Positions 9,330 through 59,896 of a stretch of 64,000 nucleotides of DNA are shown piece by piece (position 1 is the first letter of the stretch; every line of letters starts with the position of its first letter). A model generated the notes under the pieces. That model saw only the letters and a list, made by a program, of their open reading frames with translations. It was not told where the DNA came from and ran no database searches. This DNA is from Apophysomyces variabilis. Taxonomy: Eukaryota > Mucoromycota > Mucoromycetes > Mucorales > Mucoraceae. The position numbers and the translations under genes are program-made. Location of the stretch: the NCBI GenBank assembly GCA_002749535.1, contig MZZL01000390.1, positions 447,778-511,777 on the forward strand, read 5' to 3'.

Positions 9330-9369
9330 AAGAAGGTCCCGCGCAGTGAAAACAACTCTCTGAAGTTTA

Positions 9370-11656
9370 GTGATAATCGAAGAGACTGGCATAATCACTT
9401 TCCACAAGTGTAACAATCCAAATCCTTCTGGAAAAGGAACCCGCATTCGAAATGGTGATATTGGCAACATTTTGACTATCCCTTGCCCGGCGAAATATAG
9501 CAGGTCTACTTCCGTCGGACCCAACAGACAAGGAAATTTCATAAAGATTTTTGGATGCATTCACGTCACGATCCCACAGTGTACCACAGTTCTTGCACCC
9601 AAGGACATCGTGGTGGGTAACGCCGTCCAAAGTCTTCATCTTCTGAAAAGTTCGCTGGTTGCAGCAATGACATATCTAAGCACAATACAAAAGTTATCCA
9701 TTACAAAAATGAGAAGGAAGAATAAACCTGATGGATTTACCTGTGAAGATAAGTATTCCTCTACAGTGACAACTAGAACCTGCCGTTGCCGCTCCCGTCT
9801 TTTAAGGCTGCTCTATAGCTTTCCAACCACCCCAGAAGGATGGCCCTTAAATTTTGTTTTTCTTTGATTGAACATCCCGTTACCAAACGCAATCAATGGC
9901 ATTTTTCCATCATTGTCAACTTTGACTTTCTGTTTCTTCCACCGAGGAAGTCTTCTGTTTGTGTTTGTTGACCTGATGGATGATTCAGGTCTTCTTATAT
10001 TACTATAGATTGTCATCAGTTATCATCGACTTGTCCTATTGTAATAAACCAAAGCATCGTTTACCTTTCGTGAGACGGTTCGGTCCTTTCGGGACTACCA
10101 GCCAATCTTTTCTGGCGTCCACGTACTCGCTTATCCTTCTTCTTTTTCCAATTTCGTTTAGTTTTCTTTCTTCGCCTTCGGTCATACTTTTTGCCGCCAT
10201 TGATCAGTATGTTTGCGATTTCGTCTCTAGCGCGTTGTCTCCCTGATAGTTGTAGAATCGGTCACGACCTCTGTCATAGTGATAAAAACCGAAAAGCTCT
10301 TCGCGATGCAGAAAAAAGTACTGCAAATACTCAGAGTATTGGACGCTGCTGCAGGTCTTTGCGGTTGGGAATTTTGATTCGATTTCTTTAATTCCAGCGG
10401 TCTGCTTTTCCTTGTTTAGTTGATTATTTCTGCGGGCAGATCCTGTTAGAGCATAGTATCCGCAGTGGAGCAGCGCCCAATCTCGTGGCTTTCTTCAGAA
10501 TAGCCATAGGACGCAGTGAACAAAGCACGAACACCAGGATCCAAGGCTGCTGGGCGAAAGTATTCTTGAACCTCCTCGATATTGAAGTCTTCAAGTTGGA
10601 TACCTTCATCCATGGTTGTCCTAACTGGTTTGGCGCGAGAAAACTGAAAATGAACAGTAAACCCGTCTGTCATAATTTGATTTCGGAATACTCGTTTTGA
10701 ATCGATTCTAACCAATATAGCTTAACTAAACCATGGCATCGTCGACAATCGAATTGAAGCTTACCTGTTGAACCCATATCGATCAAGGTCAAAACATTGA
10801 TTAAATAGGGCAAGATTACTGTCATAATCATTATTCCTTGGTAAACTAATTGACGCAAGAGTCGATAACGTTTGGGAATCGACCGTGACAAAGCGCCATT
10901 GAAATGATGGAAGCGGAGCTAATGAAAAGAGTTTTGGTAATGATATGCCCTGTTTATGTTGAGTGGTAGTTGTTGCTTGCAAGCGTCATTAGAATTGAGG
11001 CGGCCTCAGCCTCCTGATGTAGCTCCGTGTACCTAGCAAGGATATGCCGGAGAAGACGGATGTATCTCCCAGGCGATGTTGCCAATGCTGCTTGTTCGTA
11101 AGGTAGAGGAATAACTGCTTGTAATTCATCGTGGATGTCCCAAACCGAGTCAATAATATAAACGGAAACTAGGTGCACAACATGGACTGGCCATTTAGGC
11201 TCACCATTTGCGACAACTTCCATGATGAAGTCCCAAACAATCTGTCGAGCATAGCTCGTACTAAGTGCCTATCATATTTTATAAATACGTCAAGGTCGAT
11301 TTAATTAATAGTCGAGCTTACTGGCACGAGCCTTTGCAATTTGTATAAAGAATAAGTTGATATTCGACCGTAGAAATTGTCAACAATATGGCTTGTATAG
11401 GCCTCTGCTATGGAAAGCAGGCAGCCGACAGAGCATGACCGTAGCCAACAAATCCTCGGAGCGGGTATACAATCTCTGAATAAAGCGCTTGATACACCAA
11501 CCACTCTTGCCTGATCGATTCGGGAAAGTTTGGGTTCGTATTGGTGATTGTTTTGCCGAGAACTAATTGACAGACAGAATAGCAGAAATTTTGAAAGAAA
11601 ACATAGACGGAGATCTCAGACCGGGAGTGAATGATAATATAGCCATTAACAAACAT
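9370..11656 (-). pseudogene. Fanzor (eukaryotic TnpB-like RNA-guided nuclease), decayed copy
   Basis: Reading leftward, pieces of one Fanzor protein appear in order. They are an N-terminal helical region (about 10670-11656, including LFSLAPLPSFQWRF), then MTDGFTVHFQFSR, then RuvC-I ALDPGVRALFTA with its aspartate at 10539-10541. Next come AFGNGMFNQRKTKFKG (about 9900), RuvC-II TVEEYL (about 9755) and, after an apparent intron, the zinc-ribbon and RuvC-III region CKNCGTLWDRDVNASKN (about 9555-9600). The ORF is interrupted by a TAG at 9813-9815, in the position of a conserved tyrosine codon after VVGKL, by stops after RuvC-I and by a frameshift near 11410. Both catalytic acidic positions I examined are still readable, so loss is recent relative to the divergence from the second copy. 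Known Fanzors are omega-RNA-guided DNA nucleases carried by transposons; this copy cannot make a full protein. Confidence 0.8.
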
Positions 11657-28479: not shown

Positions 28480-28865
28480 GCAACTATCCGTCTCTGAGAG
28501 CAAGGACAACTTACAGTTCCGGGCATGTGCCGAATGTTCGTTCCCGGACTTTCTTCTTTCCTCCTTGATCGCACACGCCCATCATGGATTTGGTGCTGTG
28601 TGGGCGTCCCCTCAGTGGGCGGTGGGATACCGTTCGGGGGTAACTAAAGAAGACATCAATCATATCCTTACATTTACTAACTAGAAATGTACATTTTATG
28701 CTGCTCTAATCGATTTCGCGTCCATTGGAGGACAAAGCTGATTGTAAGTGAAATATGCTATTCGGTAGAACTTATCTACTAATAACGCATGTTTTATTAG
28801 CACTTTTAGCACATTTTTGGTCTTTCATGGACGGGAAATTTGCGTTAGAGTAGTGTGAAATTACA
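28480..28865 (+). repeat. Transposon terminal module, copy 1, with consecutive hairpins
   Basis: This segment aligns with 56700-57095. Shared landmarks are TTCGGGGGTAA, a following C/TTTACATTTACTAAC-like block, AATAACGCAT, and an end with GAGTAG and a T/A-rich tail. Upstream of the landmark a 7-bp stem (ACGCCCA 28575-28581 with TGGGCGT 28601-28607), a CCC/GGG stem (about 28608-28619) and a TACC/GGTA stem around the TTCG follow one another. The second copy has three stems in the same order built from different bases. Confidence 0.55.
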
Positions 28866-55799: not shown

Positions 55800-56115
55800 C
55801 TATTTTTTGCATTTAACGAAAAAGCTCTCAGCATGTCTGATCCATTCTTGACAGTCTGAGCGCTTTACTTTTCGCGCTGCTTGAACAATACGCTCTTGAA
55901 GGTATCGTCAACTCCGTAAGGACTCCCTTCTTACCCCAGCCTTCACTTTGGCCCAAAACTCTTTTATTTGGTTAAGAAAGGGAGAGTAGAGAGGAAGCTA
56001 GAGATATTTGCATCCTCTTTCTTCGACCAACTGCTTAACCTTGACTGGTGTATGGATGGGTGCATTATCCATGACAAGATAATAACCGTTCTTTCCGTGG
56101 CAATCCAATCTTTTG
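55800..56115 (-). pseudogene. Tc1/mariner-type transposase C-terminal fragment
   Basis: On the minus strand the sequence reads YYLVMDNAPIHTPVKVKQL, ERGCKYL, then a stop where LYLPPYSP is expected, then YSPFLNQIKEFWAKVKAG and a further stop shortly after. These are the second and third acidic motifs of a DDE transposase (DNAPIH and the IEEFW position, here IKEFW). The expected glutamate of IEEFW reads as lysine-glutamate. Stops and the missing N-terminus show a dead copy. Confidence 0.85.
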
Positions 56116-56699
56116 TGATTGCTTAATAGACAAAGATAAAATAGAAGAAAAGGAGAACATAACTACATTCAGGGAAAAGTAAAGTGGAATGTAAAGCAAT
56201 ACAATTGAGAAGAACCGGAACTGGGGTACATTGCCCTGACAGCTTCTAGTACCATAACTGATAGAAACGGATATGATAGCATCAAGACGTGTAGAAACAA
56301 ACGAAGAGGGTTTATTTCCTCTATAGATGTTCCATTCTGTCCCAGACTTTCTGTCAGACTGAGTCCATTTTTACTCTTGGGAGAACTGTTATCTTATCTC
56401 TGAATTGTTGTCATCCATAAGACATCCATCGAATTTCTTATCCATGACTGTGATTTTTGGTTTCAGTAATCCCGTACTATTTAAAAGCGAAGGGACAACA
56501 CCTTTTCAATTCTTTGGCTCTGTTCTCCAAAAACATCCCCGGTATGTACTTCGCATTGATCGTATGTACAGAATGACTGATGTCCCTCTTCTGTAACCTT
56601 TAGCCTGTATGACCTCTGTCCCGAACCACCTTGGTTGTGTGAGTAAGCTCCCTGCACTCCACTAGGTAAGTGAAAAAGAAATCTTGTCTGTTTATGCAC

Positions 56700-57095
56700 A
56701 GTGTCATTCATTATCTTCTGCTTCCCAGTCCTCGCCAGGTGTTGCATCGCTTCAAGTCCTCTGCAGTGCGTTACACACGAACCGGCCACTCTCAGATGCC
56801 GTGCCTGTCTCTCGCCGGCCCCACCGATACAGGTGCGGGGCCGGCCTCTGCCTTTGGGCAGGATTACCCTTCGGGGGTAAATAAAAAAGATGTCAAGCTA
56901 TCCTTCCATTTACTAACCATGAACATTCTTTTACGCTGCTCGAATGAATTTTGTGTCCACGGAAGGACCAAGTTGAGGTAAGTAAAATATATTTCCCGCA
57001 TAATCCATTTACTAATGACGCATATTTAAATCCCTTTTAGCGCAAACTTGATCCTTGCATGGACGCAAAATTTATTTAGAGTAGCGTAAAAAATT
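56700..57095 (+). repeat. Transposon terminal module, copy 2, with three strong hairpins
   Basis: Aligns with 28480-28865. It contains in order a perfect 9-bp stem (GCCGGCCCC 56814-56822 with GGGGCCGGC 56837-56845), a 5-bp stem (CTGCC 56848-56852 with GGCAG 56857-56861) and a stem closed by a cUUCGg loop (TTACCC 56864-56869, pairing to 56880). About 170 bp later it ends with ATTTAGAGTAGCGTAAA (about 57075-57091). The first and second stems differ in bases from the 28-kb copy but keep pairing, suggesting a structured RNA. It lies only about 90 bp upstream of the Fanzor frame. Confidence 0.6.
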
Positions 57096-57180
57096 GTTCA
57101 ATAAACAGTATGTATGCGAACTGTCATCCCAGTGTGTTATATGTGTATAGAATAAGGGACGGATAGAATCCTTTGATACT

Positions 57181-58284
57181 GTGAAGGTCCTACAAGAAAA
57201 GCTCAAGCAAGCTCGACGGGATCGTTACGTCCTTAACAAAGCGATGAGAGAAGTAAGCAAAAAAGGGAAGGGCAAAGAGAAAAGCAGCGCTTCGACAAGT
57301 CGCTCCCGAAAACGAAAGCGTAAAAGGCAAAAGCGCAGTAGCCAAGCAGCGTCATCCGCCAAACCAAAAATCACTGAAGGGTATATGCCACTGGTACGTA
57401 CACTTTAATCTGAAGAGATTATGAAAGATTGATAACTATTTTAGATGCTGTCTCTCGTGAAGCCACTTTTTGAAAAGAATTCGATCCCTGTTTGCGGCGT
57501 TGATCCCGGTATTCGGACCACCGGTGTGTCAACAAGTACGACATCTGCATGGATGACACAACGGATACGGAACTTTACCAGTAACACAACGACAGAGCTA
57601 CGACACGATATTTACAATACCTGGAGTCTCCGAGCATCAGCTGTCAACCATCACTCGCGCTCGAGCAGACATCGTCTGCGCAGAGAACGAGCCAAGAATG
57701 CTGAGAAAGAGGGGACCGAAGCTGAGAACAGGAGAATTGAACGTGAAAAGCGTACTAGAGAGGTGTTTACCCAGAAAGCATACCACAAGTATGCTGACAT
57801 CGAACGTATGCACTTCCCCCCCAGACATGATTTTTCAAAAGCTGTTCATTTTTACGGCCATTGGCAGCCCACCAATTCTCACATTCGAGGACATGCTCGC
57901 AGGGGACTCAAACGGTTACGTGGAGTACAACGACGAAAAGGCTTTTTAGTTATTGTGAACGAATACAACACTAGTAAGACCTGCCACTGGTGTCTCAAGC
58001 CTCTACAGTTGCAGAAATACCGAGGGAAGGACGGCAAGGTCAGGAAGTGTAATGGAGCTGTCTGCTGCGTGAACCCTAACTGTGTTACCGTCGTCAACGG
58101 CTGTAGCACGATGAACCGGGATGGCAATGCGTCGAAGAACATTGCACTCAAAGGCGTATCCATGATTGTCTCAAGTGATGGAAGTCCAATCCCGGTGTTC
58201 AGCTCTCAATACTCAAGCAATTACAAGCTTGCACAACAATTGGCTAGTCAACCAACCCCGGTTCGACTTCTGCATGGCCCATGA
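57181..58284 (+). CDS. Fanzor (eukaryotic TnpB-like RNA-guided nuclease), catalytic half intact
   Basis: An open frame from about 57157 to 57392 and, after a GTACGT...TTTTAG intron (57393-57444), from 57445 to 58284 (279 codons). The first part is a basic helical segment (VLQEKLKQARRDRYVLNKAM then a lysine/arginine-rich run). RuvC-I is PVCGVDPGIRTTGV with Asp at 57502-57504; RuvC-II is VIVNEYNTSKTC with Glu at 57961-57963. A zinc ribbon follows, with CHWC (58.0 kb) and CNGAVCCVNPNC, and then RuvC-III MNRDGNASKN with Asp at 58120-58122. All three acidic residues and the paired cysteines are present with no stop. The usual several-hundred-residue N-terminal region is not visible upstream; a terminal module ends at 57091, so the gene may be 5'-truncated or its first exons displaced. 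No ATG is fixed for the first exon. Confidence 0.85.
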
Positions 58285-58725
58285 AGGGCAATTACCTAGT
58301 AAGTACAAGCACTGCTCTATATCAGTAACTAATTTTTTGTAGATACCTCCGTCGGTATGAGTGTTGACTAATCTGCCAGTTTCCTTCGTCGGTTTTCGCT
58401 GTCTGATACTTATCGAGTAAATGGCGGTTAGCTATCCGTTTTATGCATCAGCTAGACCTGTTCTAGATCAACAATCTCCGTCAGAAACGTGCCATCCAGA
58501 AGTCAATATTTCGTTCCCATCGATCTGTCTCGACCTTTTAGCTCGATTTGTTGCTGACGTAACTGCTTTGCTTTATCTTTCCATCGATGGGAAACAATGA
58601 GATGAATCGATTTCAATTTGGGAACGGCAAATTCTCTGCCAAAACATTGCTGTTCCCATTCTCAGATGTTCAGTCGTATCGTAATAGTTTTGATATGGGT
58701 TACTTCCATCCAATGCGCCCAATAC
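58285..58725. other. Spacer between Fanzor and pyrophosphatase genes
   Basis: About 440 bp. It would hold both the 3' end of the Fanzor element and the pyrophosphatase promoter. I see no match here to the terminal modules found elsewhere, so the right boundary of the element is not identified. Confidence 0.4.
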
Positions 58726-59896
58726 ATGGTTCGATCTGTGGGTATTGCCGGATCGCTTGACTACAAAGTCTACTTTGGTAAAAAGAGGAAATTCGGAGGA
58801 AGTACATGCCCATCCTAAAGCACCCAATTCTCAGAAAATGTAGCTGGAGAGGTTATTTCGCCTTTTCATGATATTCCATTGAATAACGGGTCTGTCTTTA
58901 ACATGGTTGTGGAGATCCCTCGGTGGCACAATGCAAAATTTGAGGTAGTCACTCATATATAGAGAGGTTATTATTTTGGAAATGCTCCATAACACTTTAT
59001 GTTTCTTTCCTTATGTCAGATCAACAAAGAAACACAGTTTAACCCTATCGTGCAAGACCGAAGCAACCGAGCTCTTCGGTTTGCTTATAATATATTCCCG
59101 TACAAAGGTTATTTGTGGAATTACGGTGCCTTCCCTCAGGTATGAAAACAGAGAAGATTTAAGCTTGATATTCTACCATGATTTCATTAGACTTGGGAAG
59201 ATCCAAACCATATCACACAAGATCTTGATACTCGAGGTGATAATGACCCAATCGATGTGATAGAAATTGGAGACCGCGTCGCTATCCTGGGAGAAGTTTT
59301 GCAGGTTAAAATATTAGGTATTATAGCGTTGATAGATCAGCAGAAAACAGACTGGAAAGTTGTGGTTGTGGATATCAATGACCCTCTAGCAACTAAACTT
59401 CATGGTATGTTGAATCCGCGGGATTGAGTCGTGGAGGCTATTCTCATCTGGAAAAAAAGATGCCGGCGATATCGATATTTATAAGCCTGGACTCCTAAAT
59501 GCAACGGCTACCTGGTTTTGCATGTACAAAATGCCAGACGGTCAGGAACCTAATACGATTGCCTACAACGGCCAGATAAGGAACAAAACCTTTGCCACCA
59601 ATATCGTCATGAATACACACCAATACTGGAATGCGCTTATCAATGGTACAACTCCCAGGAAGAACATAGAGACGTAAGGCATCTTGTAGCCTGCAAGCAG
59701 ATTTTGCTAACTTCTTTAGCCATAGTATTAACGTCTCTGTAGACGGTTCCCCGTATAGAGTCCTTCCGAATGCCACTTTGCCTACGGTAAGCCTTTTCCT
59801 CCTCGGTGCATTAGACATCTTACAGTGTAAAATCAGGGACCTATACGAGACCCGCACCCCGTTCCTTCTTCCGTGGACAAATGGTATTACCTGTAA
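58726..59896 (+). CDS. IPP1: Soluble inorganic pyrophosphatase (family I)
   Basis: Seven exons (58726-58777, 58835-58944, 59020-59139, 59191-59404, 59460-59673, 59720-59786, 59837-59896) total 837 nt, about 278 aa, all in phase. It hydrolyses PPi to phosphate with Mg2+. The fold is clear: [37 protein letters not shown], the [17 protein letters not shown] block, the PPase signature [35 protein letters not shown] and a final DKWYYL matching the usual DKWFF end. The N-terminus begins close to the usual GxxNTLDYRVY motif, so a few residues may lie in an unseen exon. Transposon debris lies directly upstream, yet the gene is intact. Confidence 0.92.

What the first reader, a model, noticed from the sequence alone, without database searches (positions are those of the whole stretch)
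57157..58284. Fanzor nuclease with an intact catalytic core
RuvC-I Asp (57502), RuvC-II Glu (57961), RuvC-III Asp (58120) and a paired-cysteine zinc ribbon are all present in one stop-free, intron-containing frame. Established: Fanzors are eukaryotic relatives of TnpB that use an omega RNA to cut DNA. The basic KGKGKEK/RKRKRKR segment before RuvC-I could be a nuclear localisation signal. The visible protein lacks the long N-terminal half, so it is either truncated or has hidden upstream exons; a compact version would be notable.
Basis: partly seen in the sequence, partly recalled or inferred. Interest (0 to 1): 0.9.

Follow-up and report, generated by a model that had tools for sequence, protein, structure and literature searches.

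The report
Truncated relic of a Fanzor transposon
This is the broken-off last quarter of a gene for a Fanzor, a DNA-cutting enzyme carried by a jumping gene; the cutting residues are still there, but the rest of the enzyme was lost, while much longer copies survive elsewhere in the same genome.

Summary
Other copies in the window's own genome show that 57176/57187-58358 is the 3' end of a roughly 5.6-kb element whose long copies encode a six-exon, 1310-residue Fanzor1-like protein (conceptual splice, open in 3 of 7 copies tested). The window keeps residues 963-1310 (27%): basic stretch, RuvC core, zinc ribbon. The preceding recognition half is absent; upstream lie other repeats, not hidden exons. 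The copy also has a compensated frameshift pair and a weakened splice donor. Best reading: a decaying 5'-truncated transposon copy, probably without nuclease activity; an omega-RNA role of its intact right end is possible but unsupported.

The parent family is the interesting part: four copies 99.5-99.8% identical, a protein longer than the ~800 residues I saw reported for Fanzor1, and an exon-4-like region upstream of 29 of 40 other-family RuvC/zinc hits. No transposase was found in its six exon frames, and no consistent target-site duplication.

The parts
57176..58358 (+). 3' end of the ~5.6-kb Fanzor element (secure homology from 57187; 57176-57186 ambiguous)
   Evidence: blastn to the 18 loci: 15 match from 57176-57209 on, L011 from 57406 (its contig ends there), L023 and L024 only the last 0.2-0.35 kb; matches end at 58345-58369
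57187..57393 (+). remnant of exon 5: basic stretch, first in-frame ATG 57244
   Evidence: frame of 57151
57394..57444 (+). predicted 51-nt intron; donor CTG|GTACGT where 13 of 15 aligned copies have CAG|GTAAGT
57445..58284 (+). exon 6, 279 aa: RuvC-I to RuvC-III with zinc ribbon, stop at 58282-58284
57502..57504 (+). RuvC-I Asp in VDPG
   Evidence: D in 15 of 16 aligned rows (window included)
57815..57840 (+). one inserted and one deleted homopolymer base; a few residues read out of the ancestral frame (HFPPRHDFSK for HFPPDMIFQK)
57961..57963 (+). alternative RuvC-II Glu (E + 6 residues + C)
   Evidence: E in 16 of 16 rows
57982..58083 (+). four-Cys zinc ribbon CHWC ... CxxxxC
58120..58122 (+). 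RuvC-III Asp in NRDG
   Evidence: D in 16 of 16 rows
58299..58342 (+). intron-like stretch in the 3' untranslated part (GTAAGT ... TTTTTTGTAG)
   Evidence: seen directly; splicing not shown
58343..58358 (+). right end of the element; 58359 onward is flank without other match in the genome

Best explanation
The feature is a 5'-truncated, decaying copy of a mobile element whose only detected gene is a long Fanzor1-like protein. In full copies the 1310-residue protein would bind an omega RNA made at the element's 3' end and cut matching DNA with its RuvC core, favouring retention of the element (inferred from studied Fanzors and TnpBs). The element itself is probably moved by an enzyme supplied from elsewhere (inferred). 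The window copy lost the N-terminal 73% of the protein and everything upstream of it in the element, so it most likely makes no active nuclease.
For: Same-genome copies at 93-96% aa identity. Shared right end and copies about 5.6 kb long, four of them 99.5-99.8% identical. Six-exon 1310-aa frame open in 3 of 7 copies tested. The window homology begins only at residue 963. Other repeats lie directly upstream. Frameshift pair and weakened splice donor. pN/pS is 0.38-0.53 between C79 and four diverged copies, so past selection on the protein.
Against: The window frame is still open and all seven key residues are kept. The 9 private coding substitutions split 5 nonsynonymous to 4 synonymous, which does not separate neutrality from constraint (P = 0.12). 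The splice model rests on GT-AG signals, not RNA. The four diverged copies used for pN/pS hold 2, 2, 2 and 10 stops themselves. Structure models were too poor to use (pLDDT 40.5 and 43.3). The protein database could not be searched.
Confidence: 0.87

Rival explanations
1. The window copy is a live guide donor: its intact right end makes an omega RNA whose guide is read from the flank at 58359 onward, used in trans by the full-length protein, an idea suggested by the ghost elements of Spizellomyces.
For: Right end kept and shared with other copies; the 74 nt from stop to end (58285-58358) resemble the ~80 nt of SpuFz1 (PMC10432273, passages).
Against: Predicted folds of the last 75 and 150 nt are no better than shuffles (z 0.78 and -0.34; in L014 0.74 and 0.05); the 3' untranslated part diverges within the range of the other parts (0.041-0.096); no RNA data.
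Confidence: 0.12
2. A compact Fanzor of about 329 residues starting at ATG 57244, working without a recognition lobe, or a domesticated nuclease domain.
For: Open frame after splicing, catalytic residues kept.
Against: The preceding 962 residues of the parent are missing; donor weakened; a segment read out of frame; no clear sign of selection; parents are 1310 aa. A promoter was not looked for.
Confidence: 0.02
3. The long frame is two genes: a C-terminal Fanzor and a separate upstream gene.
For: Splicing not shown; no Pfam family above its cut-off in exon frames 1-5.
Against: An exon-4-like region lies upstream of RuvC/zinc hits of other families, 1.1-2.2 kb away on the same strand, in 29 of 40 places (11 of 40 have none); phase-compatible introns of 49-54 nt between all exons.
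Confidence: 0.12

Closest known systems
SpuFz1, Fanzor1 of Spizellomyces punctatus (PDB 8gkh and others)
   Same: Only Fanzor among the solved structures matched by sequence; same order and similar spacing of D-E-D (153 and 53 residues here, 158 and 65 there from D383, E541, D606), CxxC...NPNC zinc ribbon, NRD motif
   Different: SpuFz1 is 633 aa from one exon with 33-bp TIRs and putative TA duplications (PMC3627910, passages); the parent here is 1310 aa in six exons, with no consistent duplication; the window copy is a fragment
MCi-2 Fanzor1 elements of Mucor circinelloides (PMC3627910, section 12 read)
   Same: 6-kb 3' region encoding a Fanzor, no recognisable TIRs, near-identical copies, varying 5' parts
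   Different: MCi-2A and 2D have 11-12-bp duplications ATAATTNNNN(N) and 2A a partial Crypton transposase; neither found here. Protein sequences were not compared
PpFz1 of Parasitella parasitica
   Same: Fanzor1 enlarged by an insertion
   Different: Insertion of about 100 aa inside RuvC (PMC11423790, passages); here the extra length lies before RuvC-I. No match to it (E up to 10), though I did not check that its chains are in that copy
Ghost Spu-1 elements (PMC10432273, passages)
   Same: Copies keeping the right end without the whole gene
   Different: Ghosts keep both ends and lack the gene; the window copy keeps only the right end with part of the gene

Membership tests
Fanzor (parent family and window fragment) | DPG at RuvC-I | tested here: met
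   VDPG at 57499-57510
Fanzor (parent family and window fragment) | alternative Glu six residues before the first zinc Cys | tested here: met
   E-YNTSKT-C at 57961; of 7 E-x6-CxxC matches in six frames of the window, the only one with an uninterrupted run to an RD motif
Fanzor (parent family and window fragment) | four-Cys zinc ribbon followed by RD | tested here: met
   second pair CxxxxC as in SpuFz1, not CxxC
Fanzor1 | recognition and wedge (REC/WED) half before RuvC | tested here: not met
   residues 1-962 of the parent are absent from the window copy, so the copy is not a complete Fanzor1
Fanzor1 | wedge with TDG motif, in the parent protein | tested here: inconclusive
   no TDG; an ADG at residues 788-790 may be its counterpart; model too poor
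Fanzor1 | carried by a non-IS607 transposable element | tested here: met
   repeated ~5.6-kb element with common ends; no recombinase found in its exon frames
Fanzor1 | omega RNA at the 3' end | tested here: inconclusive
   folds not better than shuffles; no RNA data
Fanzor1 | RNA-guided DNA cleavage | not testable with these tools
   needs biochemistry
MCi-2-type element | 11-12-bp target-site duplication | tested here: not met
   exact repeats of 6 (C79), 3 (two copies) and 0 bases (five copies) in 8 copies; 56 cross-copy controls gave 0 to 4. C79 alone could have an imperfect 10-bp repeat
Helitron-borne Fanzor | TC...CTRR ends (recalled) | tested here: not met
   ends TACGGTATC... and ...CGGTAT

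The most novel reading that the evidence does not exclude
The window fragment samples a clade of recently mobile, oversized Fanzor1 proteins (about 1300 residues, with a long N-terminal extension and a basic, perhaps coiled insertion of some 200 residues between wedge and RuvC-I), spread in several families of one genome and moved without target-site duplication by an unknown enzyme; an intron-like stretch over the 3' end could even make splicing compete with omega-RNA formation.
Probability: 0.4. Interest if true: 0.6.

Novelty: new member of a known kind. Interest (0 to 1): 0.33.

Why it matters
For the window copy, little: it warns that an intact catalytic triad in one open frame does not make a working Fanzor. 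For the parent family, it offers several near-identical natural copies of an unusually long eukaryotic RNA-guided nuclease candidate, useful for asking what the extra domains do and how Fanzor elements without a transposase gene move.

Tried and rejected
Compact Fanzor and hidden upstream exons: rejected by the copy comparison. A common 5' boundary of the window and L012 copies (both at ATACTG, 57176) looked like a true element end; they share no substitution of their own, L016, which groups with them, has Ns there, and microhomology would explain it as well, so I left it open and do not build on it. The junction string GATACTGTGAAGGT seen beside both: 7 places with up to one mismatch to the 16-base pattern against 3 in the reversed-pattern control; L038, fetched for it, shows no element right end by eye; dropped. 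Structure prediction: two models, both too poor to search with, so no fold search was made. L039 and L040 show only that the left 260 bp belong to a wider repeat family. Rfam: no match in the window at gathering scores.

Not possible: the protein database search (switched off), so I cannot say how widespread the long form is outside this genome.

Full report
Observation. Asp 57502, Glu 57961, Asp 58120 and four zinc-ribbon Cys codons lie in one frame. The frame consists of two open stretches joined by a predicted intron, 57394-57444, with a stop at 57406-57408 if it is not removed. Family searches give the Cas12f1-like TNB domain (PF07282, E 3.7e-4, 21.0 bits against a cut-off of 26.3), NCBIfam guided TnpB only weakly (E 0.017, 14.4 bits against 100), and among solved structures Spizellomyces Fanzor (E 0.0055; 7.3e-5 with an alignment; the only other row in each call had E above 1). 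In a genome-wide PF07282 search eight sister copies pass the cut-off with 26.5-27.6 bits when neighbours in the frame are added; the window copy itself is not in that list. Spacing of the triad, 153 and 53 residues (1051, 1204, 1257 of the parent), is close to SpuFz1's 158 and 65 (D383, E541, D606; PMC10432273 and PMC11423790, passages). The Glu sits six residues before the first zinc Cys, the rearranged Fanzor position (PMC10711439, passages).

What it is. The window lies in a 38.7-Mb genome held as G000. Searching it with the 279-aa frame gave 108 matches: eight full-length places at 93-100% including the window itself (seven without stops), a tail of decayed copies, and many hits at 30-36% identity to other families. 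Eighteen loci were fetched. Their matches end at window 58345-58369, most at 58358, and in 14 of 18 the homology to sister copies goes on for kilobases to the left of the point where the window stops matching (57176, securely 57187); L011 ends with its contig, L012 stops where the window does, and L023 and L024 keep only pieces. With ten upstream stretches the element is about 5.6 kb: of nine copies compared, eight begin TACGGTATC (one of them aligned with one base more) and eight end CGGTAT; C94 differs at both ends, C78 has a gap of Ns and C81, a tenth, matches well only from about position 577. C79, C107, C27a and C95b are 99.5-99.8% identical to one another in the pairs measured. A conceptual splice gives six exons and 1310 residues, open throughout in C79, C107 and C27a; the other four of seven copies failed at the first junction string that did not match exactly and were not assembled. 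The window keeps residues 963-1310. An exon-4-like region lies upstream of 29 of 40 RuvC/zinc hits of other families, 1.1-2.2 kb away on the same strand; 11 of 40 have none at that threshold, among them the place fetched as L037, though L037 aligns to the exon-4 region at 22%.

State of the window copy. Fifteen other copies were aligned with it; three short loci (L011, L023, L024) were left out. Fifteen positions are private to the window by the rule used, three of them in the ambiguous left edge. Nine coding substitutions are 5 nonsynonymous and 4 synonymous (P = 0.12 against neutrality). One inserted and one deleted homopolymer base put a few residues (57815-57840) out of the ancestral frame. 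The intron donor reads CTG|GTACGT; 13 of 15 copies have CAG|GTAAGT, L020 and L022 do not. Of the seven key residues in 16 rows, losses are seen only in L021 (RuvC-I Asp), L026 and L020 (one Cys each). pN/pS between C79 and four diverged copies is 0.38-0.53, although these copies carry 2 to 10 stops; for the nearly identical C107 it is 1.43 from six changes, which says nothing.

Surroundings. From about 55.80 to 57.11 kb lies another repeat: about 40 copies counting the window's were scored in each of two searches, at 92-96% and 87-95% (40 of 517 and 40 of 268 candidates scored, so the true number is probably higher), with a broken DDE_3 transposase on the minus strand (PF13358, E 9.8e-14). Its 56874-57110 part is 75% identical to the stretch just after the stop of another Fanzor-type gene, L037, which fits capture of a Fanzor by a Tc1/mariner-like element (inference). 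A third repeat end covers 57133-57182. Right of 58358 the DNA has no other match in the genome at the settings used (query to 58700), and an inorganic pyrophosphatase gene or relic follows.

Mechanism. Shown: truncation, copy relations, preserved triad, no consistent target-site duplication (6, 3, 3 and five times 0 bases in eight copies, 56 controls 0-4; C79 alone may have an imperfect 10-bp repeat) and no Pfam transposase in the six exon frames (the 1.37 kb before exon 1 was not scanned). Inferred: the full protein is an RNA-guided nuclease; the element is moved in trans; the window copy is inactive because the half that should bind RNA and target is missing. The right end could in principle still make an omega RNA with a guide from 58359 onward, but folds are no better than shuffles and the 3' part is not clearly more conserved than the rest. 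An intron-like stretch (58299-58342, GTAAGT...TTTTTTGTAG) overlaps that region; whether it is spliced is unknown. Between the ADG of the parent (788) and RuvC-I Asp (1051) lie about 260 residues; in the other, more typical Fanzor of this window the same step (TDG to DPG) is about 45 residues by eye, so most of that stretch looks like an insertion, and L037 has a similar basic stretch there.

Known or new. Fanzor1 in transposons of Mucorales has been known since 2013 (PMC3627910, sections 6 and 12 read, passages otherwise), including elements that encode no transposase. In what I read, Fanzor1 proteins are mostly 600-700 residues (PMC11423790, passages) and reach about 800 (PMC10711439, section 28 and passages); PMC10432273 was seen in section 5 and passages. 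I saw no mention of a 1300-residue form there or in the listings of five library searches, none of which could ask for length as such; supplements could not be read, and the MCi-2 proteins may be of this kind. The window fragment is therefore an ordinary relic; the parent is at least a new member, possibly a long variant.

Noticed in passing
window 9367-10721, minus strand: Remains of a second Fanzor gene: LDPGVRALFTASYG with an MTDG motif upstream (10446-10721; no Pfam match of its own) and a zinc ribbon piece CKNCGTLWDRDVNASKN (9367-9675; PF07282 E 1.1e-5, 26.0 bits against 26.3). The pieces lie in separate open frames, so it looks broken.
   Followed up: partly
window about 55800-57111, minus strand for the transposase: Tc1/mariner-like repeat, about 40 copies scored and probably more, with a broken DDE_3 transposase; its right part resembles the 3' end of another Fanzor element (L037 3880-4119) and another window stretch (28628-28860, 74%).
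   Followed up: partly
window 56815-56890: Hairpins inside that repeat (GCCGGCCCC...GGGGCCGGC, CTGCC...GGCAG, TTACCCTTCGGGGGTAA); fold of 56765-56914 z -1.62, two stretches after or around the L037 Fanzor stop z -2.00 and -2.21, but two further window stretches z 0.68 and -0.41: a weak candidate for a structured RNA.
   Followed up: no
G000, whole genome: High Fanzor load: 73 PF07282 matches at E <= 0.001 (150 of 164 candidates scored) besides divergent ones; two of the 30-36% families have ten or more places with the same score to the query.
   Followed up: partly
L037 2587-3864: Related Fanzor-type gene with NEFRSSQLC and GRDQNAALNI but a damaged zinc ribbon (CPFR) and, by eye, GTDYG instead of DPG at RuvC-I.
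   Followed up: partly
L030 9404-9663 (element left end): The first 260 bp of the element also occur in a wider repeat family (L039, L040, ~80%) that continues at element position 562; positions 260-500 occur separately at other sites.
   Followed up: partly
window 59191-59674, plus strand: Inorganic pyrophosphatase pieces (PF00719, E 8.3e-16 and 9.3e-5) right of the fragment; whether the gene is intact was not examined.
   Followed up: no
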